Below are positions 14,402-25,249 of a DNA stretch of 64,000 nt, in pieces. The stretch comes from Gemmobacter caeruleus. GTDB lineage: Bacteria; Pseudomonadota; Alphaproteobacteria; Rhodobacterales; Rhodobacteraceae. The stretch lies in NCBI RefSeq assembly GCF_008271655.1, contig NZ_VKKX01000011.1:62001-126000 (forward strand), read 5' to 3'. The notes under the pieces were generated by a model. The model was not told the DNA's origin. It worked only from the letters and a program-made list of their open reading frames with translations, and searched no databases. The translations under genes and the position numbers were made by a program. Position 1 is the first letter of the stretch. Each line of letters begins with the position of its first letter.

Positions 14402-14506
14402 GATCATTCTCCAAGGGAATCTGTCGGGCACAGAACGTAAGGATCGCACCGCCCGACGTCAAGAACTTGCGGCTGACGCAAGGCCGACCCCCAATTGTCG
14501 CATGGC

Positions 14507-14541
14507 AAAAGGCCCGGTGCGTGGGGACGCACCGGGCCTTT
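14507..14541 (-). terminator. Terminator of the first aldehyde dehydrogenase gene
   Basis: ACGCACCGGGCCTTT (plus) and its partner AAAGGCCCGGTGCGT make a 15-bp GC-rich stem. On the minus strand it ends in a T run and lies just after the aldehyde dehydrogenase stop, separating it from trxA. Confidence 0.9.
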
Positions 14542-14599
14542 CCTGCCCGACACAGGGAGTTGACGGGCCGGGAGGCGGCCCGCCTGTCGGGAAGCCGGA

Positions 14600-16117
14600 T
14601 CAGAAGAAGCCCAGCTTGTTGGGGTTGTAGCTGACCAGCAGGTTCTTGGTTTCCTGATAATGGTCGAGCATCATCTTGTGGGTCTCGCGCCCGATACCGG
14701 ACTGCTTGTAGCCCCCGAAGGCCGCGCCGGCCGGGTAGGCGTGATAGCAGTTGGTCCAGACCCGACCCGCCTCGATGCCGCGACCGGCGCGATAGGCGGT
14801 GTTGGTGTCGCGGCTCCAGACGCCCGCGCCCAGACCGAACACGGTGTCATTGGAGATCTCCAGCGCTTCTTCCAGCGTCTTGAAGGTGGTCACCGACACG
14901 ACCGGCCCGAAGATTTCCTCCTGGAAGACCCGCATCTTGTTGTGACCTTCAAAGACGGTCGGCTGGATGTAGAAGCCATTCGACAGATCGCCGTTGAACT
15001 TGTTCACCGACCCGCCGGTCAGCACCTTGGCGCCTTCCTTGCGGCCGATTTCCAGATAGGCGCTGATCTTGTCATATTGCTCCTGGCTGGCCTGCGCGCC
15101 GATCATGGTCGCGGTGGCACGCGGGTCGCCGGCGACGATCGCGTTCACTCGCGCCAGCGCCTTTTCCATGAAGCGGTCATAGATCGATTCATGCACCAGC
15201 GCGCGGCTGGGGCAGGTGCAGATCTCGCCCTGGTTCAGCGCGAACATCGCGAAGCCTTCCAGCGCCTTGTCGAGGAATTCGTCATCCTCGTTCATCACAT
15301 CGGCAAAGAACACGTTGGGGGATTTGCCACCCAGTTCCAGCGTGATGTTGGTCAGGTTGTCGGCGGCCGCCTTCATGATCATCTTGCCGACCGGGGTGGA
15401 GCCGGTGAAGGCGATCTTGGCGATGCGCTTGGACGAGGACAGGGCGGCGCCCGCCTCTTCGCCGATGCCGTTCACGATGTTCAGAACGCCCGGCGGCAGC
15501 AGGTCTTCGATGAACTGCATGAGATAGAGGATCGAGGCCGGGGTCTGTTCGGCGGGCTTCAGCACCACGCAGTTGCCGGCGGCCAGCGCAGGTGCCAGTT
15601 TCCACGCCGCCATCAGGATGGGGAAGTTCCACGGGATGATCTGCCCGACAACGCCCAGCGGCTCGTGGAAGTGATAGGCCACGGTGTCATTGTCGATCTG
15701 CCCGATCGAGCCTTCCTGCGCGCGGATCGCGCCGGCGAAATAGCGGAAATGGTCGATGGTCAGCGGGATGTCGGCGGCCATCGTCTCGCGCAGCGGCTTG
15801 CCATTGTCCCAGGTCTCGGCGACGGCGATCGCCTCCAGGTTCTGCTCGATCCGGTCGGCGATCTTGAGCAGGATGTTCGACCGCTCGGTGACCGAGGTCT
15901 CGCCCCATTTCTTGCGGGCGGCATGGGCGGCATCCAGCGCGCGCTCGATATCGGCGGCGTCGGAGCGGGCCACCTGGCAGACCACCGCGCCGGTCACCGG
16001 CGAGATGTTGTCCATGTAGCGGCCGGATTTCGGGGCCACCCATTCGCCGCCGATGAAGTTGTCGTAGCGGGTCTTGAAGGGCGCTTTCGTCAGGTCGAAA
16101 GTTTCGAGTTTCGTCAT
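14600..16117 (-). CDS. NAD-dependent aldehyde dehydrogenase (ExaC/AldB-like)
   Basis: A 505-residue aldehyde dehydrogenase. The NAD-binding [13 protein letters not shown] segment, the catalytic Glu in [12 protein letters not shown] and the catalytic Cys in [12 protein letters not shown] are intact. The overall form, including [18 protein letters not shown] and the ending [14 protein letters not shown], matches the ExaC/AldB acetaldehyde-type clade that oxidises short-chain aldehydes from alcohol breakdown. Upstream lies an AcoR-like GAF-Fis regulator gene on the same strand and, between them, the perfect palindrome TGTCTCAG-TT-CTGAGACA. It therefore is probably induced by the alcohol or aldehyde. 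A strong terminator follows. Confidence 0.92.
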
Positions 16118-16220
16118 GGTCTGTTCCTCCTCTGCGCCGCCTCCCTGCGGCGGTGTGGTTTCAGTCTGCGGGTGATTGCGATGCCGGTCACCCCGGTCCG
16201 GTCAGGTCGGGGGCGCGGGT

Positions 16221-16238
16221 TGTCTCAGTTCTGAGACA
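16221..16238 (-). promoter_or_regulatory. Perfect inverted repeat upstream of the aldehyde dehydrogenase, probable operator
   Basis: TGTCTCAGTTCTGAGACA has perfect 8-bp arms and a 2-bp spacer. It lies about 105 bp before the aldehyde dehydrogenase start codon and just after the stop of the GAF-Fis regulator gene. No GG-N10-GC sigma-54 core was found between them. The neighbouring regulator is the natural candidate to bind it. Confidence 0.7.
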
Positions 16239-16260
16239 GGTTGCGCCCCCGGCGATGGCG

Positions 16261-17208
16261 TCAATGTCGCGTGGCGACCTTGCGGTGAAACGTGGCCCGG
16301 CTGATGCCCAGGCTGCGCGCCGCGGCCGAGGCATTGCCCTGGGCGCGCGCCAGTGCCCGGGCGATGACGGCGCGTTCGCCGCCCTCCAGCGTGCCATGCG
16401 ATTCGAGACCCAGAAGATCGGCCGCCGGGCGCGGGGCGCGGCGCAGATCGCCGCTCAGCCCCAGATGCAGCCGCGCGGCGCGGGTGGCGCCGATCACCAG
16501 CTCGTCGGCGTCCACGGCCAGCAGCGCGCCGGCGCCGCGTTCGGTGCCGGGCACCACCAGCAGCCGCGCCTGCGGGAATGCGGTGCGGAACAGATCGCCC
16601 TCGATCCGCCGGGCCGCCTCGGTCACCGAATGGGCGACCAGCTGCATCACCGCCTCCGAACAGGCCGCACTGGCCGAAGACACATCCAGAACGGCGGTCA
16701 ACTGGCCCTCCGCATCATGAATCGGCGCCGAGGAACAGCTCAGCCCGGTATGGGCGGCCATGAAATGCTGATCGCGCAGGATGGTCAGGGGCCGGCGCTC
16801 GACAATGCAGGTGCCGATGCCATTGGTCCCCGCCGCGCGCTCGGACCAGATCGTGCCGGTCCACAGCCCCGCCCGGGCAAAATCGTCGTCCTCGCCCGGA
16901 TTGCCGCGCCGGTCCACCGGCACGCCGTCGCGATCGGTCAGCACGACACAGGTGCCCAGCCCGCCAACGGCACGGAACAGCCGGTCCATCGTGGGGGCGG
17001 CGGCGCGGATCGTGGGCTCCATCCCCGCGCGCAGCGCCGCCAGCTCGCCCTCGGTCAGGCGGGGCGTCTTGCGCCCGGCGCCGGGATCCAGCCCGTGCAT
17101 CCGGGCCGAACGCGACCAGGATGCCGCGATGGGCGACCGCGCGGCCTCGCCGGTGGTCAGCGCGGCCTCGATCCGGGCGGCGTGATGATAAGTTTCGCTG
17201 CAAGGCAT
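16261..17208 (-). CDS. GAF-Fis regulator, AcoR-like but without AAA+ domain
   Basis: A 315-residue protein with the N-terminal part of AcoR-type regulators (IAASWSRSARMHGLDPG near residue 35 and a GAF-type domain including SERAAGTNGIGTCIVE and the SSAPIHDAEGQLTAVLDVSS strand) and a C-terminal Fis-type helix-turn-helix (NASAAARSLGISRATFHRKV). The AAA+ sigma-54 interaction domain, with its GAFTGA loop and Walker motifs, is absent. It therefore probably cannot drive sigma-54 transcription and should act through an ordinary promoter. The start was set by GGGGAGGAACGC. It lies just upstream of the aldehyde dehydrogenase in the same direction and likely controls it. Confidence 0.8.
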   Translation of the reverse strand: MPCSETYHHAARIEAALTTGEAARSPIAASWSRSARMHGLDPGAGRKTPRLTEGELAALRAGMEPTIRAAAPTMDRLFRAVGGLGTCVVLTDRDGVPVDRRGNPGEDDDFARAGLWTGTIWSERAAGTNGIGTCIVERRPLTILRDQHFMAAHTGLSCSSAPIHDAEGQLTAVLDVSSASAACSEAVMQLVAHSVTEAARRIEGDLFRTAFPQARLLVVPGTERGAGALLAVDADELVIGATRAARLHLGLSGDLRRAPRPAADLLGLESHGTLEGGERAVIARALARAQGNASAAARSLGISRATFHRKVATRH

Positions 17209-17314
17209 GCGTTCCTCCCCGAGCCGCATGGATGTGCCCATGCTAGAGAAACGCGCCGCGCTGTCTGTGCGACATTGGTCTAATCCGCCGCCGCGCCCGG
17301 GCAAGACCGGGCCT

Positions 17315-17411: not shown

Positions 17412-18857
17412 TCAGTCCTGCGCGCTGTCCCAACCGGAGATCGCCTTGACCTCCAGAAATTCCTCGATCCCCCAATGTCCGCCTTCGCGGGCGCGGCCCG
17501 AGGCCTTGATGCCGCCAAAGGGGCTGCCGGCGGCGCGGGATTTGCCGTTCATCTCCACCATGCCTGCGCGCAATTGCCGCGCCAGCCGATTGCGCCGCGC
17601 GCCGTCCTGGCTCTGCACATAATTGGTCAGGCCATAGGGCGTGTCATTGGCGATGCGCACCGCCTCTGCCTCGGTGTCGAAAGGGATGATCGACAGGACG
17701 GGGCCAAAGATTTCCTCGCGTTCGATGGTCATCCCGGGGGTGACATCGGCAAAGACCGTGGGCTTCACATAGAAGCCGCGATTGAGGTGTTCAGGCCGGC
17801 CAAGCCCGCCCGCCACCAGCCGCGCGCCTTCCTCGATCCCTTTCTGGATATAGGACTGGATCTGGTTCCATTGCCGCTCATTCACCACCGGGCCGATATG
17901 CGGCCCTTCGGCCGAGGCCGGGCCGACCTCGATGGAGGCAGCAATTTGTGCGGCCTTTTCAACGGTCTGGTCATAGATCGACCGTTCCACCAGCATGCGC
18001 GAGGGCGCGTTGCAGCTCTGGCCCGAATTGTTCATCATGTGGCGCACGCCGCGTTCCACCGCGCGCTCATCGGCATCGGCAAAGATCAGGTTGGCGCCCT
18101 TGCCCCCTAGTTCCAGCGTCACGCGCTTCAGCGTCTCGGCGGCGGCCTTGCTGATCGCGCGCCCGGCCCGGGTCGAGCCGGTGAACGAGATCATCTCCAC
18201 ATCCGGGTGTTCCGACAGGCGCGTGCCGACGCCGGCGCCATCGCCATTCACCAGATTGAACACGCCCGGCGGCAGCCCGGCATCGTGGCAGAATTCAGCG
18301 AACAGGATCGAGGACAGCGGCGCCTCCTCCGACGGTTTCAGCACGCAGGGGCATCCGGCCAGCAGCGCGGGAATCACCTTGAGCGTCACCTGGTTCATCG
18401 GCCAGTTCCAGGGCGTGATCAGTCCGACCACGCCGATGGGCTCCAGCGCGATGCGGTCATTGGGCGCATGGGGGCCCAGCGGGCGCACCCATTCGATCTG
18501 ATCGAAAGCGGTCAGAAAATTCTTCAGATGCCAGGGCAGGCAAGGCGCCTGGCTTTCGCGCGCCAGTTTGATCGGGGCGCCCATTTCCAGGCTGATCGCC
18601 CGGGCCATTTCCTCGGCCCGCGCCTCATATTGTTCCAGGATTCTCACGACATGGGCGCGGCGGGTTTCCGGTGGGGTAGCGGCCCAGCCCGGGAAGGCGG
18701 CCTTGGCCGCGGCCACCGCGCGGTCGCAATCCGCCGCCGTGCCCAGCGAGATCACCGCGCAGGGCTCCTCGGTCGAGGGGTCGATCACCGCGCAATCGCG
18801 CGGCGCCAGCGGGGCGACCCAGGCGCCATTGATGTAAAAGTCGCGTTTCTCGATCAT
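17412..18857 (-). CDS. NAD(P)-dependent aldehyde dehydrogenase family protein
   Basis: A 481-residue aldehyde dehydrogenase. The catalytic Glu in LELGGKGANLIFAD and catalytic Cys in NNSGQSCNAPSRMLV are present, with FTGSTRAGRAISKAA as NAD-binding loop. It differs from the ExaC type at 14.6 kb and is closer to the broad-specificity group (betaine, hydroxy and semialdehyde oxidisers). The start is the ATG preceded by GGAGGCCCGA. The palindrome AATTTGATCAAATT lies 58 bp upstream of this start, and its 12-bp core recurs upstream of the GAPDH-like gene 38 kb away, so both may be controlled by the same regulator. Confidence 0.9.
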   Translation of the reverse strand: MIEKRDFYINGAWVAPLAPRDCAVIDPSTEEPCAVISLGTAADCDRAVAAAKAAFPGWAATPPETRRAHVVRILEQYEARAEEMARAISLEMGAPIKLARESQAPCLPWHLKNFLTAFDQIEWVRPLGPHAPNDRIALEPIGVVGLITPWNWPMNQVTLKVIPALLAGCPCVLKPSEEAPLSSILFAEFCHDAGLPPGVFNLVNGDGAGVGTRLSEHPDVEMISFTGSTRAGRAISKAAAETLKRVTLELGGKGANLIFADADERAVERGVRHMMNNSGQSCNAPSRMLVERSIYDQTVEKAAQIAASIEVGPASAEGPHIGPVVNERQWNQIQSYIQKGIEEGARLVAGGLGRPEHLNRGFYVKPTVFADVTPGMTIEREEIFGPVLSIIPFDTEAEAVRIANDTPYGLTNYVQSQDGARRNRLARQLRAGMVEMNGKSRAAGSPFGGIKASGRAREGGHWGIEEFLEVKAISGWDSAQD

Positions 18858-18914
18858 TCGGGCCTCCATGCGGTCGCGCGCAGTCTGGCAGGGGCGCAGA
18901 CCGAGGGCAAGCAA

Positions 18915-18928
18915 AATTTGATCAAATT
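18915..18928 (-). promoter_or_regulatory. Perfect palindrome AATTTGATCAAATT, candidate operator
   Basis: A 14-bp perfect palindrome lies 58 bp before the start codon of the aldehyde dehydrogenase. Its central 12 bp also occur before the GAPDH-like gene at a similar distance. This is rare AT-rich sequence in a GC-rich context, which makes chance less likely. Confidence 0.6.
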
Positions 18929-19706
18929 AATAGGCAGTCCAGCTTTCCGGGTCATAGCCGAAATCCGCCAGATCCTGCCCGCAAAGCGGGCGGGCCAGCG
19001 CGGCGGTTTCCGGCGTGTAGGCGCGGGCGCGGGTCTTGCTGGAATTGCGCGGCTGCGCCAGACGGTCGATCACCCAGTCCGGCGGAAAGCCCAGCGGCGC
19101 TGTGACCGCCAGAAAGCCGTCTTGCAACTGATCCTCGATCCGCCACAGCGCGGCATAGCGGATGCGGTCGGTCATCAGCACCCGCGATTGCGGTTCCCAA
19201 TGGTGGTCGCGGCGACCCTCGGGCGTGGCGGCGACCCAATGCAGGAAGGTGTCAAAGGGCACCAGCGTATTGGGTGCCCCGCCTTCCAGCCCCCGCGACC
19301 GCGCAAAGGCGCGCAGCGGCGCCAGCCGGTATTTGCGGATCGACCGGGCATAGGCACTGTCGAGCCCCTGTGGCGAGCGATGATGCCCGTCAAAGAACTT
19401 GTTCTTCCAGGCCGAGGCCAGCCGCCCATAGGGGTTGCGGACAAAGGCATGGGTGGCCCAGGCATCGGGGCGGCGCAGGTAATCGAGGTAATCGCCGCTG
19501 CGCGCCAGTGGAAAGCGGCGCGCCACGTTCAGCATGGGCCAGCGTCCGCCCGAGGGGTCGTCCTGCCCCAGATGCAGGCGATAGCCCTCGGCCAGCAGGG
19601 CGCGGGTGAAGGTGGTCAGCACCTTGGGGTTCAGCATCAGCGCGGTATGGCTTTCGCGATGCAGGAACAGCTTGAACGGGCTGAAATGTCGATTGGGCCA
19701 CAGCAT
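18927..19706 (-). CDS. Sulfotransferase family 2-like protein
   Basis: A 259-residue protein resembling carbohydrate sulfotransferases (PF03567). The 5' PAPS-binding part is near HRESHTALM (about residues 16-24), and the 3' PAPS motif is FVRNPYGRLASAWKNKFFDG (about residue 88), where Arg and Asn contact phosphate. The rest of the chain is basic and has no signal peptide or membrane segment. It would move sulfate from PAPS to a sugar or similar acceptor. A PAP phosphatase (cysQ) lies 6 kb away in the window. The ATG was chosen for GGAGGGG upstream. It lies divergent to a peroxiredoxin gene. Confidence 0.75.
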   Translation of the reverse strand: MLWPNRHFSPFKLFLHRESHTALMLNPKVLTTFTRALLAEGYRLHLGQDDPSGGRWPMLNVARRFPLARSGDYLDYLRRPDAWATHAFVRNPYGRLASAWKNKFFDGHHRSPQGLDSAYARSIRKYRLAPLRAFARSRGLEGGAPNTLVPFDTFLHWVAATPEGRRDHHWEPQSRVLMTDRIRYAALWRIEDQLQDGFLAVTAPLGFPPDWVIDRLAQPRNSSKTRARAYTPETAALARPLCGQDLADFGYDPESWTAY

Positions 19707-19961
19707 GCGCCTAGCCCCTCCGCTTGGGCTGGGCTGGTGCCGGGCCATGGGGCCGGGCAAGCGCATCGGTGATATCGGTCTGCATCTGGCCCCCATTCGC
19801 GGACGATCGGACCCTATCCAGCGGCGGCGGGAAAGACAACGTCCCGCGCCCCGGCCGCTTTCGCCTGCCGGCGGTCTTCTTTGCCGCGCCGGGGCTTTCC
19901 GGGCTGGATTCCGCGGCGCGGGGGATTATGTTGCCTGCGAATTCCTTGCAGGAGCCAAGCA

Positions 19962-20621
19962 ATGTCCGTTCGCATCAACGATATCGCCCCCGATTTCACC
20001 GCCGACTCGACCGCCGGCACCATCCGGTTCCACGAATGGCTGGGCGACAGCTACGGGATCGTGTTCTCGCATCCGCGCGATTTCACCCCGGTCTGCACCA
20101 CCGAATTCGGCGCCGTGGCGCAACTGGCCGGCGAATTCGCCAAGCGCAATACCAAGGTGATCGGCGTTTCGGTGGATTCGGTCGAGGATCACGGCAAATG
20201 GAAGCGCGACATCGAGGCCTTTGCCGGCAGCCCGGCCGATTTCCCGATCATCGACGACACCTCGCTGACGGTGGCCAAGGCCTATGACATGCTGCCGGCC
20301 GAATATTACCTGCCCAGCGAAGGGCGCACCCCGGCGAATACTGCCACCGTGCGCACGGTCTATATCGTCGGCCCCGACAAGAAGGTGCGCCTGACCATGA
20401 CCTATCCGATGTCGGTCGGCCGCAACTTCGCCGAGATCCTGCGCGCGCTGGACGCGGTGCAGGCCACTGATGGCGTGCCGCTGGCCACGCCGGCCAACTG
20501 GGTGCCGGGTCAGGATGTGATCGTCGCGCTGAGCCTGAACAACGATCAGGCGGCCGAGAAATACGGCCAGCTCGACATCAAGCTGCCCTATCTGCGCTTT
20601 GCCAAGGCCCCGACGAAGTAA
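19962..20621 (+). CDS. 1-Cys peroxiredoxin (Prx6 family)
   Basis: A 219-residue peroxidase. The peroxidatic Cys is in DFTPVCTTEFG (about residue 46), and the C-terminal NWVPGQDVIVALSLNN segment is typical of Prx6-type, 1-Cys enzymes. It reduces hydrogen and alkyl peroxides in the cytoplasm. The start was placed at ATG 19962, where GGAGCC precedes it and the family N-terminus MSVRINDIAPDFTAD begins; a longer open frame upstream is probably not translated. A canonical terminator follows. Position next to the DUF1127-CcsR stress locus suggests a stress-response neighbourhood. Confidence 0.93.
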   Translation: MSVRINDIAPDFTADSTAGTIRFHEWLGDSYGIVFSHPRDFTPVCTTEFGAVAQLAGEFAKRNTKVIGVSVDSVEDHGKWKRDIEAFAGSPADFPIIDDTSLTVAKAYDMLPAEYYLPSEGRTPANTATVRTVYIVGPDKKVRLTMTYPMSVGRNFAEILRALDAVQATDGVPLATPANWVPGQDVIVALSLNNDQAAEKYGQLDIKLPYLRFAKAPTK

Positions 20622-20643
20622 GTCGTCGATTTTGCACTTGCAG

Positions 20644-20673
20644 AAATCCCGTGCGTCTCGCACGGGATTTTTT
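20644..20673 (+). terminator. Rho-independent terminator of the peroxiredoxin gene
   Basis: AAATCCCGTGCG pairs with CGCACGGGATTT across a TCT loop and is followed by a T run. Confidence 0.9.
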
Positions 20674-20770
20674 CATGTCGGATCGCGTATGAAACCGCTT
20701 TGAGTCCCCCGTTTTTGGCCGAAACCCGAGCCATGCAGGAAACGCATGGCGGCTTTGGGCAGAGGGCGGA

Positions 20771-20800
20771 TTGTGCGGGTGCAGCATTTGCCCCATGTTA
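20771..20800 (+). promoter_or_regulatory. Possible RpoH-type promoter of the DUF1127-CcsR unit
   Basis: TTGTGC, a 16-bp gap and CCATGTTA roughly fit the alphaproteobacterial RpoH pattern (CTTG, spacer, CYTATNT). In Rhodobacter sphaeroides the equivalent locus is RpoHI/RpoHII-dependent. The assignment here is weak without mapping of the 5' end. Confidence 0.35.
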
Positions 20801-20861
20801 GCGTCAACGGCAAAGGGCAATCCGGCCCGCGCCGAACCGAAGAAGATGATGAGGTTCTGAC

Positions 20862-21077
20862 ATGGCTTATGTGGTTTCCAATCGCGTTTCCGGCTTCTCG
20901 CTGGTGGAGTTCGCGGCGAACACCGTCGCCAACGTCAAAGCGGCTCTGGCGCGTCGCGCCGTCTATACCCGCACCCTGGCCGAGCTGAACGCGCTGAGCG
21001 ATCGTGATCTGGCCGATCTGGGCGTGGTCCGCGCGCAGGTGGCCGATCTGGCCCATGAAGCGGCCTACGGCAAGTAA
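20862..21077 (+). CDS. DUF1127 (YjiS-like) small protein
   Basis: A 71-residue basic protein with the C-terminal YTRTLAELNALSDRDLADLGVV motif of DUF1127. The family occurs upstream of CcsR small RNAs in Rhodobacter sphaeroides, where the protein (CcaF1) binds RNA and affects sRNA maturation (known for that homologue). The same arrangement is seen here: two CCTCCTCCC-loop hairpins follow immediately, then a terminator. The protein lacks cysteine and any membrane segment and likely acts in the cytoplasm. It should be part of one transcript with the RNAs. Confidence 0.88.
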   Translation: MAYVVSNRVSGFSLVEFAANTVANVKAALARRAVYTRTLAELNALSDRDLADLGVVRAQVADLAHEAAYGK

Positions 21078-21087
21078 TTCGCGAAAG

Positions 21088-21117
21088 ACCGGCATCCTCC
21101 TCCTCCCTGATGCCGGT
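21088..21117 (+). ncRNA. CcsR/cuckoo-type sRNA hairpin 1
   Basis: ACCGGCAT pairs with ATGCCGGT around a 14-nt loop carrying CCTCCTCCTCCC, the anti-Shine-Dalgarno-like motif of CcsR RNAs. It begins 10 nt after the DUF1127 stop codon and would be processed from the same transcript. Confidence 0.85.
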
Positions 21118-21120
21118 TCT

Positions 21121-21150
21121 GGTGGGGCACTCCTCCTCCCTTGCTCCACC
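21121..21150 (+). ncRNA. CcsR/cuckoo-type sRNA hairpin 2
   Basis: GGTGGGGCA pairs with TGCTCCACC (one G-U pair) around a CTCCTCCTCCCT loop. It is the second copy, 3 nt after the first, in tandem as in the four-copy CcsR locus of R. sphaeroides. A terminator follows 8 nt later. Confidence 0.85.
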
Positions 21151-21158
21151 GCCTTTTC

Positions 21159-21188
21159 AGGCCCGCAGCCCCGGCTGCGGGCCTTTTT
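21159..21188 (+). terminator. Terminator of the DUF1127-CcsR transcript
   Basis: AGGCCCGCAGCC pairs with GGCTGCGGGCCT and is followed by a T run. It closes the transcript that holds DUF1127 and both sRNA hairpins. Confidence 0.92.
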
Positions 21189-21220
21189 GCTGCCCGCCTG
21201 TCGGGCCTTGAAAGGCCATG

Positions 21221-21250
21221 AAAAAAGGCCCCGGCGAAACCGGGGCCTTT
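21221..21250 (-). terminator. Terminator of pnp
   Basis: On the minus strand, AAAGGCCCCGG pairs with CCGGGGCCTTT around CGAAA or its complement, with a T run after it (AAAAAA on the plus strand). It lies 23 bp past the pnp stop codon. Confidence 0.92.
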
Positions 21251-21272
21251 CTGAAACAGGGCGCAGAAGGGA

Positions 21273-23423
21273 TCAGCCTTCGGCGGCTTCCTCTTTCTCT
21301 TTCTTCTCGGGCGCGATTTCGGCGCCGGTTTCCTGATCGACCATCTTCATGCCGAGGCGCACCTTGCCGCGATCGTCAAAGCCGAGCAGCTTGACCTTCA
21401 CTTCCTGGCCTTCCTTCAGCACTTCGTTCGGGTGGTTCAGGCGCTTGTTGGCGATCTGGCTCACATGGACCAGACCGTCGCGCTTGCCAAAGAAGTTCAC
21501 GAAGGCGCCGAAATCGACCAGCTTGACCACCTTGCCGGTGTAGATCTGGCCCTCTTCCGGCTCTGCCACGATCGACCAGATCATGTCATAGGCGCGCTTG
21601 ATCGCATCGGCCGAGGAGGAGGCGATCTTGATCACGCCGTCATCGTTGATATCGACCTTGGCGCCCGAGGTCTCCACGATCTCGCGGATGACCTTGCCGC
21701 CCGAACCGATCACTTCGCGGATCTTGTCTGTCGGGATGGTCAGCGTCTCGATCTTGGGGGCGTATTCGCTGAAGCCCTGCGGGGCCGACAGCGCCTTGTT
21801 CATCTCGTCCAGGATGTGCATCCGGCCGTCCTTGGCCTGAGCCAGCGCCTGCTGCATGATCTCGGGGGTAATACCCGCGACCTTGATGTCCATTTGCAGC
21901 GAGGTGATGCCGTTTTCGGTGCCCGCGACCTTGAAATCCATGTCGCCGAGGTGATCCTCGTCGCCCAGGATGTCGGTCAGCACGGCCCATTTGCCGTCAT
22001 CTTCCAGGATCAGACCCATGGCCACACCGGCGACCGGCGCCTTCAGCGGCACGCCCGCATCCATCATCGACAGCGACCCGCCGCAGACCGAAGCCATGGA
22101 CGAAGAACCGTTCGATTCGGTGATCTCCGACACCACGCGAATGGTGTAGGGGAAATCGGTGGCGGCGGGCAGCACGGCTTGCAGCGCGCGCCAGGCCAGC
22201 TTGCCATGGCCGATCTCGCGGCGGCCGGGCGAACCCACGCGGCCAACCTCGCCGACCGAATAGGGCGGGAAGTTGTAGTGCAGCAGGAAGTTCGAGCGGT
22301 AATTGCCGTTCAGCGCGTCGATGATCTGCTCATCCTCGCCGGTGCCGAGCGTGGTCACGACCAAGCCCTGCGTCTCGCCGCGGGTGAACAGCGCCGAGCC
22401 ATGGGCGCGGGTCAGAACGCCGGTTTCGCAGACGATCGGGCGCACGGTCTTGGTGTCGCGGCCGTCGATACGGACGCCGTTATTCACCACGTCGCCGCGC
22501 AGGATCGACGATTCCAGCTTCTTGATGGCCGAGCCGAGGTTGATATCGGCCAGGTCTTCTTCCGACAGGGCGGCCTTGATGGCGTCCACCGCGGCGGAAA
22601 TGGCCGAGGTGCGTTCCTGCTTGTCCTTGATCGCGAAGGCCGCGCGCATCTGCGCTTCGCCCGCCGCTTTCACCTTGCCATAGATCGCGGTCAGGTCGGG
22701 CGCGGCAAAGTTGAAGGGCTCTTTCGCGGATTCTTCCGCGAAGTCGATGATCAGGTCGATCACCGGCTGCATCGCGTCATGGCCGAATTTCACGGCGCCG
22801 AGCATTTCTTCCTCGGTCAGCTCATAGGCTTCCGATTCCACCATCATCACGGCGGTCTTGGTGCCGGCGATGACCAGATCCAGACGCTGCTCCGGCTTGT
22901 TGCGCAGCTGCGTCATGTCGTCCATCGACGGGTTCAGCACATATTGCCCATCGACAAAGCCGACGCGGGCGGCGCCGATCGGGCCCATGAAGGGCACGCC
23001 CGAAATGGTCAGCGCGGCCGAGGCGGCGATCATCGCGACGATATCGGGGTCGTTTTCCAGGTCACAGGACAGAACGGTGGCCATGACCAGCACTTCGTTC
23101 TTGAAGCCTTCGACGAACAGCGGGCGGCAGGGCCGGTCGATCAGACGCGACACCAGCGTCTCTTTCTCGGACGGGCGCGCCTCGCGCTTGAAGAAGCCGC
23201 CCGGGATCTTGCCGGCGGCATAGTATTTTTCCTGATAATGCACGGTCAGCGGAAAGAAGTCCTGACCCGGCTTGGGCTGCTTGGCGAAGGTCACGTTCGC
23301 CATGACGCTGGTTTCGCCCAGCGTGGCGATGACCGAACCGTCGGCCTGACGCGCAACCTTGCCCGTTTCCAGCGTGAGCGTCTCATCGCCCCACTGGATG
23401 GATTTTTTCGTGATATGGAACAT
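21273..23423 (-). CDS. pnp: Polynucleotide phosphorylase
   Basis: A 716-residue 3'-5' phosphorolytic exoribonuclease, also able to polymerise, and a part of the RNA degradosome. Domains in order: first RNase PH core (about 10-140), alpha-helical linker, second RNase PH core (about 325-460), KH domain with the GSGG loop in [17 protein letters not shown] (about 560-575) and S1 domain with [23 protein letters not shown] (about 625-690). Length is normal. It lies downstream of rpsO with a 230-bp spacer, the classical order; E. coli pnp is autoregulated at its 5' leader. A terminator follows. Confidence 0.98.
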
Positions 23424-23607
23424 CTGTCATCCTCATGGGAGCTGTCACGGGCCCATCCCGTGTCTCCCGTTTATGGCGGCCCCATTGCCGCCGCCCCCAA
23501 TCCTGCGCATGCGGCCCGGGGGCAGGGCCTCACGTCTCAGATGGGCGGGCCATACAGGAAAACATGGCGTTTGGGAAGTGGGGAGGCGCGGCAGGCGCCA
23601 AAAGCAG

Positions 23608-23634
23608 AACGCCCGCGCCTTGCGGCACGGGCGT
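23608..23634 (-). terminator. Hairpin after rpsO
   Basis: On the minus strand, ACGCCCGTGCC pairs with GGCGCGGGCGT across GCAA and is followed by CTGCTTTTGG. It is placed in the rpsO-pnp spacer and can partly terminate, giving pnp a lower level than rpsO. Confidence 0.75.
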
Positions 23635-23657
23635 CCCGGCAAAACCTTGTGAAAGGC

Positions 23658-23927
23658 TTAGCGACGCAGGCCCAGGCGGGCGATCAGCGCGGCATAGCGG
23701 CCTTCGTCCTTGCCCTTGAGGTAGTCCAGCAGCTTGCGGCGTTGCGCCACCAGCATCAGCAGACCGCGACGCGAGTGGTTGTCTTTCTTGTGGGTCTTGA
23801 AATGCTCGGTCAGCGTCGCGATGCGCGACGACAGGATCGCAACCTGAACCTCGGGCGAACCGGTGTCGCCTTCCTTGGTCGCGTATTCCTTGATCAGGCG
23901 GGTCTTTTCTTCCACGGTGATCGACAT
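23658..23927 (-). CDS. rpsO: 30S ribosomal protein S15
   Basis: An 89-residue primary binding protein of the 16S rRNA central domain. The core [23 protein letters not shown], the [11 protein letters not shown] loop and the LGLRR end are typical. The start at [11 protein letters not shown] was chosen because AAGGAGATCCCG precedes it; the frame is open further up but that part lies in a 320-bp leader. It sits upstream of pnp as usual. Confidence 0.97.
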
Positions 23928-24250
23928 CGGGATCTCCTTTTTCGGGTTTGGGTGACGGCACAAGCCGGGATGTCGTCCAGCAGGGCCCTTCCGCCGGAAT
24001 CGGATGATCCCGCCGGATGCGCGCGTATAGGCCAAAAGCCGGGCTTTGCAAAGCCTGATCGCGCGGGGGGGCTGGCGCTGCGATGCCGGGCTTTTTAACC
24101 AAATCCGAAAGATTTGCCGCGACGCCGTGGCGCGGATGCCGCCTTTGTGCCATGATGGGCGTTGAAATTGTCAGCAATGGCAATGGCTTGCGTGAAAATA
24201 TGGTTAACGCTGCCGGGTCTGGGTCGGGCTGGTCTGCGGAGGGTGACGCG
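23928..24250. other. Intergenic region between rpsO and the RTX-type gene
   Basis: About 320 bp upstream of both genes, which diverge here. It holds the rpsO leader, AT-rich near 24160-24210. No gene is supported. In other bacteria S15 binds its own leader; no specific fold could be proposed from reading. Confidence 0.4.
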
Positions 24251-25249
24251 GTGTTGGGATTATTGGGGTTGCTGGGCGTGCTGGGCGCCGGATTTCTGGT
24301 GGACGGGATGCTGGGGCGCCCCGATCACGGTGACGATGAGGATCAGGGCGACAAGGCGCCCGAGCCGGAGGACGCGGCCGAGGCCGACCGCCCCGACATG
24401 CTTGACCTCATCACGCGCGAGGATGGCGCCGCCGCGGCCCCCGATCACGACGAGGTGCCCGAAGGCACCGACGCCGATGACCGCATCGGCGGCAGCGCCG
24501 GACGCGACGACATGCACGGGTATGGCGGCGATGACCAGTTGGTCGGGCGCGGCGGCAATGATCGGCTGGATGGCGGACAGGGTCTTGACCGGCTGGAGGG
24601 CGAGGCCGGTCGCGACCAGTTGTTCGGCCGTGCGGGCGCCGACCGGCTGGCCGGTGGCGATGGCGCCGACCGGCTGAGCGGCGGCGGCGGTGCGGATGAA
24701 CTGGCGGGCGAGAATGGCGATGACCGGCTGTTCGGCAATGCCGGCGATGACAGTCTGCTGGGCGGCAGCGGCGATGACACGCTGCGCGGCGGCACCGGGG
24801 ATGACTGGCTCAATGGCGGCTATGATGACGACAGCCTGTTCGGCGGTGCCGGGGCCGATACGCTGGATGGCGATTTCGGCAATGACACCCTGATCGGCCA
24901 CGGCCCCGAGGGCGATGACCATATCGCCGATTTCCTGAATGGCGGCGGCGGTGACGATCTGCTGGTCGCGGGGCAGGGCGATATCCTGACCGGCGGCGAC
25001 GGGGCCGATACCTTTCAGCTGGGCGACTGGCTGACCGAAGGGGACCAATCGCGCATCTTGGATTTCGACGCGCGGCAGGATACGCTGGAGGTCGTCTATG
25101 ACGCCGAGGCCCATCCCGACCCGGTGCTGAGCCTGCACAAGGTCGATGACAGCGACGACATGGCGCTGCATCTGGATGGCATGCCGCTGGCGCTGGTGCA
25201 GAACGGTTCGGGCCTCGAACTGGCGGCGATCAAGCTGCGCGCGGCCTGA
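24251..25249 (+). CDS. Membrane-anchored calcium-binding RTX-repeat protein
   Basis: A 332-residue protein. It opens with a hydrophobic helix (LGLLGLLGVLGAGFLVDGML, residues about 2-21), then an acidic linker (about 25-75) and a tandem set of GGxGxDxL-type nonapeptides (GRGGNDRLDGGQGLDRL onward, about 90-260), which bind Ca2+ in a beta roll. The C-terminal part carries FQLGDWLTEG and FDARQDTLEVVYD, as in many Rhodobacteraceae surface RTX proteins. The GTG start was preferred because GGAGG lies 8 bp before it; longer starts lack a ribosome binding site. No type I secretion genes adjoin it. Its role is unknown: envelope calcium binding or adhesion is an inference. Confidence 0.75.
   Translation: MLGLLGLLGVLGAGFLVDGMLGRPDHGDDEDQGDKAPEPEDAAEADRPDMLDLITREDGAAAAPDHDEVPEGTDADDRIGGSAGRDDMHGYGGDDQLVGRGGNDRLDGGQGLDRLEGEAGRDQLFGRAGADRLAGGDGADRLSGGGGADELAGENGDDRLFGNAGDDSLLGGSGDDTLRGGTGDDWLNGGYDDDSLFGGAGADTLDGDFGNDTLIGHGPEGDDHIADFLNGGGGDDLLVAGQGDILTGGDGADTFQLGDWLTEGDQSRILDFDARQDTLEVVYDAEAHPDPVLSLHKVDDSDDMALHLDGMPLALVQNGSGLELAAIKLRAA

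What the first reader, a model, noticed from the sequence alone, without database searches (positions are those of the whole stretch)
20771..21188. DUF1127 gene followed by two tandem CCTCCTCCC-loop hairpins (CcsR/cuckoo sRNA locus)
Right after a DUF1127 gene, two hairpins with 8- and 9-bp stems each carry a CCTCCTCCC-type (anti-Shine-Dalgarno) loop and are then closed by a terminator. This is the CcsR arrangement of Rhodobacter sphaeroides, here with two copies instead of four. It was not visible as a protein gene, and the target set in this organism is unknown. The RpoH-like promoter candidate fits a stress role.
Basis: partly seen in the sequence, partly recalled or inferred. Interest (0 to 1): 0.75.

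Follow-up and report, generated by a model that had tools for sequence, protein, structure and literature searches.

The report
DUF1127–cuckoo small-RNA stress operon
A small stress operon encodes a tiny protein of an RNA-binding type followed by a hairpin RNA that could cover ribosome-binding sites; the type is known, but its promoter carries a site matching a regulator that one recent study calls unique to another bacterial order.

Summary
Window 20862-21077 encodes a 71-aa DUF1127 protein, followed by two hairpins with identical CTCCTCCTCCC loops (21087-21118, 21121-21150) and a terminator. Rfam αr14 matches above its cut-off (64.6 bits, 58.8); Rfam CcsR1 does not (30.8, 65.3).

Corrections: two stem-loops are one CcsR unit, not two. 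The genome has a second such locus with 10 hairpins. The window copy belongs to a type found in 8 of 11 genus genomes, behind a peroxiredoxin gene in all 8, with clear hairpins in 5.

The new part is the promoter. An ATGC-N7-GCAT box lies exactly 38 nt upstream of TTGTGC in 18 of 18 genus loci and 37-38 nt upstream in 72 of 80 named loci. It resembles published VtlR/LsrB sites. An extended form, drawn from these sites, has three exact hits in the genome: both cuckoo loci and an sRNA-like stretch beside the one strong LsrB-family gene. One paper calls LsrB unique to Rhizobiales; another calls VtlR conserved in Alphaproteobacteria.

Best reading: an LsrB-family regulator plus RpoH drive the operon, which yields one two-hairpin anti-Shine-Dalgarno sRNA. 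Binding, expression and processing are inferred.

The parts
20733..20757 (+). ATGC-N7-GCATGGCGGCTTTG: LysR-type (T-N11-A) box resembling VtlR/LsrB sites; proposed main recognition site
   Evidence: 18 of 18 genus loci at exactly -38 from TTGTGC; 72 of 80 named loci at -37/-38; 3 exact extended hits in the genome; motif comparison; published motifs
20770..20786 (+). ATTGTGC..TGCAGCA: RpoH-like -35 region overlapping a second TGC-N7-GCA pair
   Evidence: most columns at least 96% conserved in 73 promoters aligned at equal spacing
20791..20799 (+). CCCCATGTT: RpoH-like -10; start site expected near 20805-20807 (inferred)
   Evidence: conserved; the R. sphaeroides operon has an RpoHI/RpoHII promoter (PMC10253847, figure legend)
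20862..21077 (+). DUF1127 (CcaF1-like) gene, 71 aa plus stop
   Evidence: Pfam PF06568 43.1 bits; B-type relatives in 8 of 11 genus genomes, own included
21087..21118 (+). cuckoo hairpin 1, loop CTCCTCCTCCC 21097-21107
21121..21150 (+). cuckoo hairpin 2, loop CTCCTCCTCCC 21130-21140
21159..21189 (+). intrinsic terminator with T run, ordinary loop without the anti-SD motif
21083..21189 (+). predicted mature sRNA, about 105 nt; whole-model match to Rfam αr14
   Evidence: 64.6 bits, cut-off 58.8; RNA ends are inferred
19962..20621 (+). 1-Cys peroxiredoxin gene upstream; neighbour in 8 of 8 B-type loci, own included (start codon inferred)
   Evidence: Pfam AhpC-TSA and 1-cysPrx_C; synteny
21273..23423 (-). 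pnp (polynucleotide phosphorylase), convergent neighbour; not conserved beside the locus
   Evidence: TIGR03591; not found in the other 7 B loci as fetched, about 1.5 kb of flank each

Best explanation
This is the smaller of two DUF1127-cuckoo (CIN1) operons of a Rhodobacterales genome (genus Gemmobacter, judged from contig lengths). A VtlR/LsrB-family LysR regulator bound at 20733-20757, together with an RpoH-type sigma factor at 20770-20799, drives one transcript carrying the DUF1127 mRNA, two anti-Shine-Dalgarno hairpins and a terminator. The 3' part is released, by analogy by RNase E with the DUF1127 protein's help, as one two-hairpin sRNA of about 105 nt. Its CUCCUCCUCCC loops pair with purine-rich ribosome-binding sites and block translation. 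The 10-hairpin sister locus shares the promoter architecture, so both should respond together. Shown by sequence: gene, hairpins, terminator, paralogue, promoter conservation, motif resemblance, presence of the regulator gene. Inferred: regulator binding, sigma factor, transcript, cleavage, pairing, targets.
For: αr14 above cut-off and strong fold. Sister locus with its own 71-aa DUF1127 protein and 10 hairpins. B-type locus in 8 of 11 genus genomes, behind the same peroxiredoxin in 8 of 8. Box at -38 in 18 of 18 genus loci and at -37/-38 in 72 of 80 named loci (about 7 of the 80 are the same places as genus loci). The 14-base composite has exactly 2 exact hits in 3.99 Mb, the two cuckoo loci; the next listed have 2 mismatches. 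Extended box: 3 exact hits, the two cuckoo loci and the stretch beside the LsrB-family gene; reversed control 0 (both patterns were drawn from these sites). Of 802274 15-mers in 80 loci, 35, 31 and 27 have exactly 1, 2 and 3 mismatches to the reverse complement of the Brucella VtlR motif; the 73 located boxes account for 33, 26 and 11 of them. One match at E<=1e-35 to a trxB-linked LysR protein in the genome, 48% identity; best PDB match 9HH1, 245 bits against 109 for the next, which PMC11975290 gives as Agrobacterium LsrB. LsrB activates NfeR1, an αr14 RNA, from TGCA-N6-GCAT within -72 to -60 (PMC10746234). VtlR upregulates three DUF1127 genes in Brucella (PMC12595884). R. sphaeroides ccaF1-CcsR is one RpoHI/II operon matured by RNase E.
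Against: No expression, binding or processing data. 8 of 80 named loci lack box plus core, 5 of them any exact box, one named Gemmobacter megaterium. The window box has 3 of 15 mismatches to the Brucella motif. In other genus genomes the extended box has four further exact hits, in 4 of 11 genomes, not at these loci. The LsrB-family gene is not beside trxB here; its product has one cysteine against four in Agrobacterium LsrB, and neither C144 nor C273 is kept, so its signal may differ. The tree leaves the order of LsrB-like groups unresolved. The hairpins are gone or degenerate in 3 of 8 B-type loci, so the sRNA half is dispensable there. CcsR1 model below cut-off.
Confidence: 0.72

Rival explanations
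1. The hairpins act only in cis: they are a 3'-UTR that stabilises or times the DUF1127 mRNA, and no trans-acting sRNA is made.
For: DUF1127 gene and promoter persist without cuckoo hairpins in 2 of 8 B-type loci, so the protein half matters on its own; hairpins plus terminator would also protect a 3' end.
Against: Loops hold CCTCCTCCC in 635 of the 684 hairpins found in 80 named loci, on 443 different 5' stem arms; the finder asks for a 7-base core, so the loop share is partly by construction. A fixed loop on free stems is not needed for stability. CcsR and NfeR1 act in trans.
Confidence: 0.15
2. The conserved box is read by a different LysR-type regulator, not by the VtlR/LsrB-family protein.
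For: T-N11-A is generic for LysR-type proteins. Outside the genus the box behind the LsrB-family gene is weak: at most 2 mismatches in 3 of the 10 other family loci looked at.
Against: The box follows the LsrB-family gene in 11 of 11 genus loci with 0-1 mismatch, and an exact ATGC-N7-GCAT does so in 5 of 9 other-family loci. Resemblance to the published VtlR motif. The first 60 residues are 38-52 of 60 identical to the nine trxB-linked proteins and 46 of 60 to Agrobacterium LsrB.
Confidence: 0.18
3. One reading: two separate short sRNAs and a reduced CcsR1-4 locus.
For: Two hairpins, each with a full loop.
Against: The two hairpins together span 64 nt; a CcsR-type RNA has two stem-loops; a 10-hairpin array exists elsewhere in the genome; both loci coexist in 7 of 11 genus genomes.
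Confidence: 0.07
4. The window copy is a decaying duplicate with little function of its own.
For: Hairpins lost or degenerate in 3 of 8 B-type loci; the 10-hairpin array would dominate the dose.
Against: In the window both loops are perfect and the promoter is intact; the operon keeps its place behind peroxiredoxin in 8 of 8.
Confidence: 0.15

Closest known systems
ccaF1-CcsR1-4 operon of Rhodobacter sphaeroides (CIN1 locus)
   Same: 71-aa DUF1127 gene, CCUCCUCCC stem-loops, terminator, RpoH-type promoter. Cereibacter johrii, taken as its proxy (kinship recalled), has the box at -38 and 8-9 hairpins.
   Different: Here one two-hairpin unit instead of four; Rfam CcsR1 below cut-off; a separate 10-hairpin locus exists in the same genome.
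NfeR1 / αr14 (Rfam RF02344) of Sinorhizobium meliloti
   Same: αr14 model passed; CCUCCUCCC loops; TGCA-N6-GCAT upstream, reported from -72 in NfeR1 and at -72 here if the start is 20806.
   Different: NfeR1 has three motif hairpins and a sigma-70 promoter; here two motif hairpins, a plain terminator and an RpoH-like core in front of a DUF1127 gene.
VtlR/LsrB regulon of Rhizobiales (AbcR, DUF1127 genes, NfeR1)
   Same: LsrB-family gene followed by an sRNA-like stretch with the box; DUF1127 gene and cuckoo RNA carry the box.
   Different: The adjacent RNA resembles SorY/SorX, not AbcR; no trxB link; cysteine pair missing.
SorY / SorX of R. sphaeroides
   Same: A stretch resembling both lies beside the LsrB-family gene behind the same box.
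   Different: SorY 85.5 bits is below its cut-off of 111; SorX 51.2 is above 46.6; other terminator-bearing sRNA models match the same stretch more weakly. Not part of the window.

Membership tests
Rfam αr14 (RF02344) | covariance score at or above the gathering cut-off 58.8 | tested here: met
   64.6 bits, whole model 1-123
Rfam αr14 (RF02344) | three hairpins, each with CCUCCUCCC unpaired (as described in PMC10746234) | tested here: not met
   two of three; the terminator loop lacks it
Rfam CcsR1 (RF02791) | gathering cut-off 65.3 | tested here: not met
   30.8 bits
CIN1 / cuckoo locus | DUF1127 gene followed by CCUCCUCCC stem-loops and a terminator on one strand | tested here: met
CIN1 / cuckoo locus | co-transcription and RNase E release of the sRNA | not testable with these tools
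   needs RNA data
CcaF1-type DUF1127 protein | Pfam DUF1127 above cut-off, 71 aa | tested here: met
   43.1 bits, cut-off 23.3; 71 aa
CcaF1-type DUF1127 protein | RNA binding | not testable with these tools
   needs pull-down
VtlR/LsrB target promoter | S. meliloti NfeR1 form of the site, TGCA-N6-GCAT | tested here: met
   window 20734-20747, exact (one search gives 20733-20747 for the box)
VtlR/LsrB target promoter | Brucella/Agrobacterium form of the site (15-mer; GCAT-N3-TG-N3-T) | tested here: inconclusive
   window 12 of 15; GCAT-N3-TG-N3-T fits literally in 7 of 76 A-type and 0 of 8 B-type loci
VtlR/LsrB target promoter | binding and activation by the protein | not testable with these tools
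   needs EMSA, reporter or knock-out
LsrB/VtlR protein family (G000:C34:362555-363418) | clear best match to LsrB | tested here: met
   9HH1 245 bits, next 109; one match at E<=1e-35 in the genome
LsrB/VtlR protein family (G000:C34:362555-363418) | one clade with LsrB to the exclusion of other LysR proteins | tested here: inconclusive
   8 of 16 second-best proteins excluded at 100/99, 8 fall in the same unresolved fork
LsrB/VtlR protein family (G000:C34:362555-363418) | gene next to trxB | tested here: not met
   no LysR gene among the ORFs listed beside trxB
LsrB/VtlR protein family (G000:C34:362555-363418) | conserved cysteines C144 and C273 | tested here: not met
   one Cys in all; the alignment shows V and A there

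The most novel reading that the evidence does not exclude
A VtlR/LsrB-family LysR regulator, which one recent paper calls unique to Rhizobiales, is present throughout the Rhodobacterales family examined and directly controls a small, conserved regulon made mostly of riboregulators: the DUF1127-cuckoo operons (including the R. sphaeroides ccaF1-CcsR type) and a SorY-like sRNA beside its own gene. The VtlR-sRNA-DUF1127 circuit would then predate the split of the two orders, and CcsR induction would need this activator as well as RpoH.
Probability: 0.65. Interest if true: 0.6.

Novelty: new member of a known kind. Interest (0 to 1): 0.5.

Why it matters
The operon itself extends a known sRNA-protein family. 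What would matter is the promoter. It would join two literatures that have run apart (CcsR/CcaF1/SorY in Rhodobacter, and VtlR/LsrB/AbcR/NfeR1 in Rhizobiales) and give the CcsR and SorY stress RNAs a testable missing activator. It also bears on a disagreement in print: PMC11975290 calls LsrB unique to Rhizobiales, PMC7486931 calls VtlR a conserved regulator of the class. Two cuckoo loci with very different hairpin numbers (2 and 10) sharing one promoter design make a natural dosage experiment.

Tried and rejected
pnp as a functional partner: rejected, of the 8 B-type loci only the window's lies beside it. trxB neighbourhood as the way to the LsrB-family gene in this genome: failed, so a trxB-linked homologue from another family was used as query. 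Rfam ar15 (AbcR) search of 115 class genomes: nothing, and nothing rang in the controls either, so it says nothing. A first script for LysR genes printed nothing; listing the ORFs then showed them beside trxB in 9 of 16 class genomes. Weak αr14 hits at window 14505-14594 and C4:33163: fewer than two cuckoo hairpins by script, dismissed. The published consensus GCAT-N3-TG-N3-T, taken literally, fits only 7 of 76 A-type and 0 of 8 B-type loci; the mismatch count was made after that, with the register chosen by eye. A strict pattern of the box beside the LsrB-family gene hit only 10 of 61 family genomes at up to 2 mismatches, so that box is well kept only near the genus. Targets: of 1930 start codons of ORFs of at least 100 aa in the window, the best scored is antisense to the array itself; the next, exaC, is -15.4 kcal/mol; lpd elsewhere -17.2; a perfect site -22.6. 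The lpd site was met by accident, so these are leads only. A genome-wide target list was not made.

Full report
What is there. The 71-aa DUF1127 gene runs 20862-21077. Nine bases after its stop begin two hairpins, each with the loop CTCCTCCTCCC, and then an intrinsic terminator. The 11-mer occurs only at these two places in the window, against 0.03 expected. The stretch folds far better than shuffles (z -7.1). Rfam αr14 passes its cut-off over the full model; the Rfam CcsR1 model does not (30.8 bits, cut-off 65.3). By Rfam it is an αr14 member, though one with two motif hairpins rather than the three that describe αr14 in PMC10746234 (passages).

Counting the units. PMC3927594 (passages) says that the R. 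sphaeroides RNA RS0680a has two stem-loops. I recall, from no call, that RS0680a-d were renamed CcsR1-4. Two hairpins are thus one unit. Cereibacter johrii and C. azotoformans, close to R. sphaeroides (kinship recalled), show runs of 8-9 hairpins, which fits four units roughly. I recall, not from a call, that the paper naming cuckoo RNAs speaks of 2 to 4 hairpins; it is not held. The 80 named loci carry runs of 0 to 14 hairpins, 61 of 80 with eight or more; the 80 are the best of 318 relatives, several from one genus or one genome. Of 684 hairpins in them, 635 hold CCTCCTCCC while 443 different 5' stem arms occur. The finder itself asks for a 7-base CTCC[TC]CC-type core, so the loop share is partly by construction; the variety of stems is not.

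A second locus. The window's genome (G000) has another CIN1 locus at C12:105867-106542: a 71-aa DUF1127 protein 49% identical to the window's, then 10 hairpins, the last followed by a short T-rich stretch. I call it type A and the window type B. Among 11 genus genomes, type A is found in 10, type B in 8 and both in 7. The genus is Gemmobacter, judged from contig lengths shared; the species is not known. Type B follows the same 1-Cys peroxiredoxin gene in 8 of 8, own included. A script finds two hairpins in 6 of 8. I clear, as they also match αr14 (49.8-76.3 bits, one of them below the cut-off); one has altered loops and no αr14 match, and 2 have none, while the DUF1127 gene and promoter stay. 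Four more DUF1127 genes above the Pfam cut-off in this genome have neither hairpins nor box.

The promoter. In 18 of 18 genus loci (8 B, 10 A), ATGC-N7-GCAT lies exactly 38 nt upstream of TTGTGC. In the 80 named loci, of which about 7 are the same places as genus loci, 72 have box and core at -37 or -38, 3 have a box only and 5 have none, one of these named Gemmobacter megaterium. The consensus is aGccATGC..tt.CtGCATgGC.GCAtTG, then ATTGTGCAg.tGCAGCA, then ccCAT.TT. ATTGTG-N15-CCCCATGT resembles an RpoH promoter (consensus recalled), and R. sphaeroides ccaF1-CcsR has an RpoHI/RpoHII promoter (PMC10253847, legend). The palindrome is a T-N11-A LysR-type box. PMC10746234 (passages) reports TGCA-N6-GCAT in the -72 to -60 stretch of NfeR1, itself αr14, where LsrB binds and activates. 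The window has TGCA-N6-GCAT at 20734-20747, which begins at -72 if transcription starts at 20806 (inferred). Brucella's VtlR motif is quoted as CAATGCAGCCATGCA (PMC12595884, passages). Of 802274 15-mers on both strands of the 80 loci, 35, 31 and 27 have exactly 1, 2 and 3 mismatches to its reverse complement; the 73 boxes located account for 33, 26 and 11. The register was chosen by eye, but the background covers every register. The window itself has 3 mismatches. The looser published consensus GCAT-N3-TG-N3-T fits literally in only 7 of 76 A-type and 0 of 8 B-type loci.

The regulator. One protein of the genome matches a trxB-linked LysR protein from another alphaproteobacterial family at E 7.6e-87 (48% identity), with no second match at E<=1e-35; all 25 same-family genomes searched have such a protein. 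Its best PDB match is 9HH1, which PMC11975290 gives as Agrobacterium LsrB (passages). That paper states that LsrB appears unique to Rhizobiales. PMC7486931, in contrast, calls VtlR a conserved regulator of the class Alphaproteobacteria (abstract; passages). The tree puts the 25 family proteins in one clade (95/100) but does not resolve their place among trxB-linked proteins, LsrB and 8 of 16 second-best LysR proteins. The gene is not next to trxB and lacks LsrB's conserved cysteines, so 'LsrB family' is firm, while 'same signal as LsrB' is not.

What sits beside it. Downstream of this gene lies a stretch resembling SorY (85.5 bits, cut-off 111) and SorX (51.2, cut-off 46.6); other terminator-bearing sRNA models match it more weakly, so the family name is loose. 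SorY matches appear in 19 of 21 family loci scanned, every one below the SorY cut-off. The box stands in front of it in 11 of 11 genus loci with 0-1 mismatch, but with at most 2 mismatches in only 3 of the 10 other family loci looked at. In 9 other-family loci an exact ATGC-N7-GCAT follows the LysR gene in 5. In Agrobacterium the AbcR RNAs hold this position (PMC7486931, passages).

Specificity. The composite of box and TTGTGC has exactly two exact hits in 3.99 Mb, the two cuckoo loci; at up to 3 mismatches it has 257 hits against 52 for the reversed control. The extended box has three exact hits, these two and the SorY-like promoter; five more have one mismatch, and the reversed pattern has none. 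Both patterns were drawn from these very sites. In the other ten genus genomes the extended box also has four exact hits elsewhere: two in front of a 135-aa gene, one in or near other genes, one not examined.

How it works, and how far this is shown. Gene, hairpins, paralogue, promoter conservation and motif resemblance are computed here. Transcription from that promoter, control by the LsrB-family protein, release of one RNA of about 105 nt and blocking of ribosome-binding sites are inferred from the relatives. Target leads are exaC (window 14600-16117, minus strand) and lpd on another contig. They fit the C1 and pyruvate dehydrogenase themes of CcsR (titles and passages) but rest on pairing energy alone.

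Novelty. Searches of the held library asking for at least three terms among CcsR, SorY, CcaF1, VtlR, LsrB, AbcR and related words listed no paper with LsrB or VtlR beside SorY or CcsR. PMC12501420 holds CcaF1 and, once, in its reference list, LsrB. A paper with only two of the terms could have been missed. The main CcsR, CcaF1 and cuckoo papers are not held, so a prior mention there is not excluded.

Noticed in passing
L156 (G000:C34:420554), L237 and L251: A CATGC-N7-GCATG box also stands in front of a 135-aa gene of unknown function (MADFIDGTAFNYEQ...), next to an EF-P-like gene (named by eye), in two other genus genomes; the own genome has a similar site with similar downstream sequence. 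A possible further member of the regulon.
   Followed up: partly
L150 (G000:C34:25562): CATGC-N7-GCATG just upstream of a dihydrolipoyl dehydrogenase gene whose RBS (AGAGGAGGGG) pairs well with the cuckoo loop, -17.2 kcal/mol.
   Followed up: partly
L024 (G017:C6 about 20500-23600): Four DUF1127 matches and 12 cuckoo hairpins within 3 kb: a multiplied CIN1 cluster.
   Followed up: no
L047 1793-1823 and L052 1792-1836 (as oriented): In two B-type relatives the terminator hairpin itself carries a CCTCCC-type loop, so terminator and anti-SD hairpin are one.
   Followed up: no
window 14600-17304, minus strand: Acetaldehyde dehydrogenase ExaC (above its NCBIfam cut-off) next to a regulator with a weak DhaR match (below cut-off); their RBSs are the best matches to the cuckoo loop in the window after the array's own antisense strand.
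   Followed up: partly
window 17475-25249: Long ORFs (up to 888 aa) run antisense to real genes, as expected in high-GC DNA; one GTG ORF (20673-21149, minus strand) runs antisense through most of the operon.
   Followed up: no
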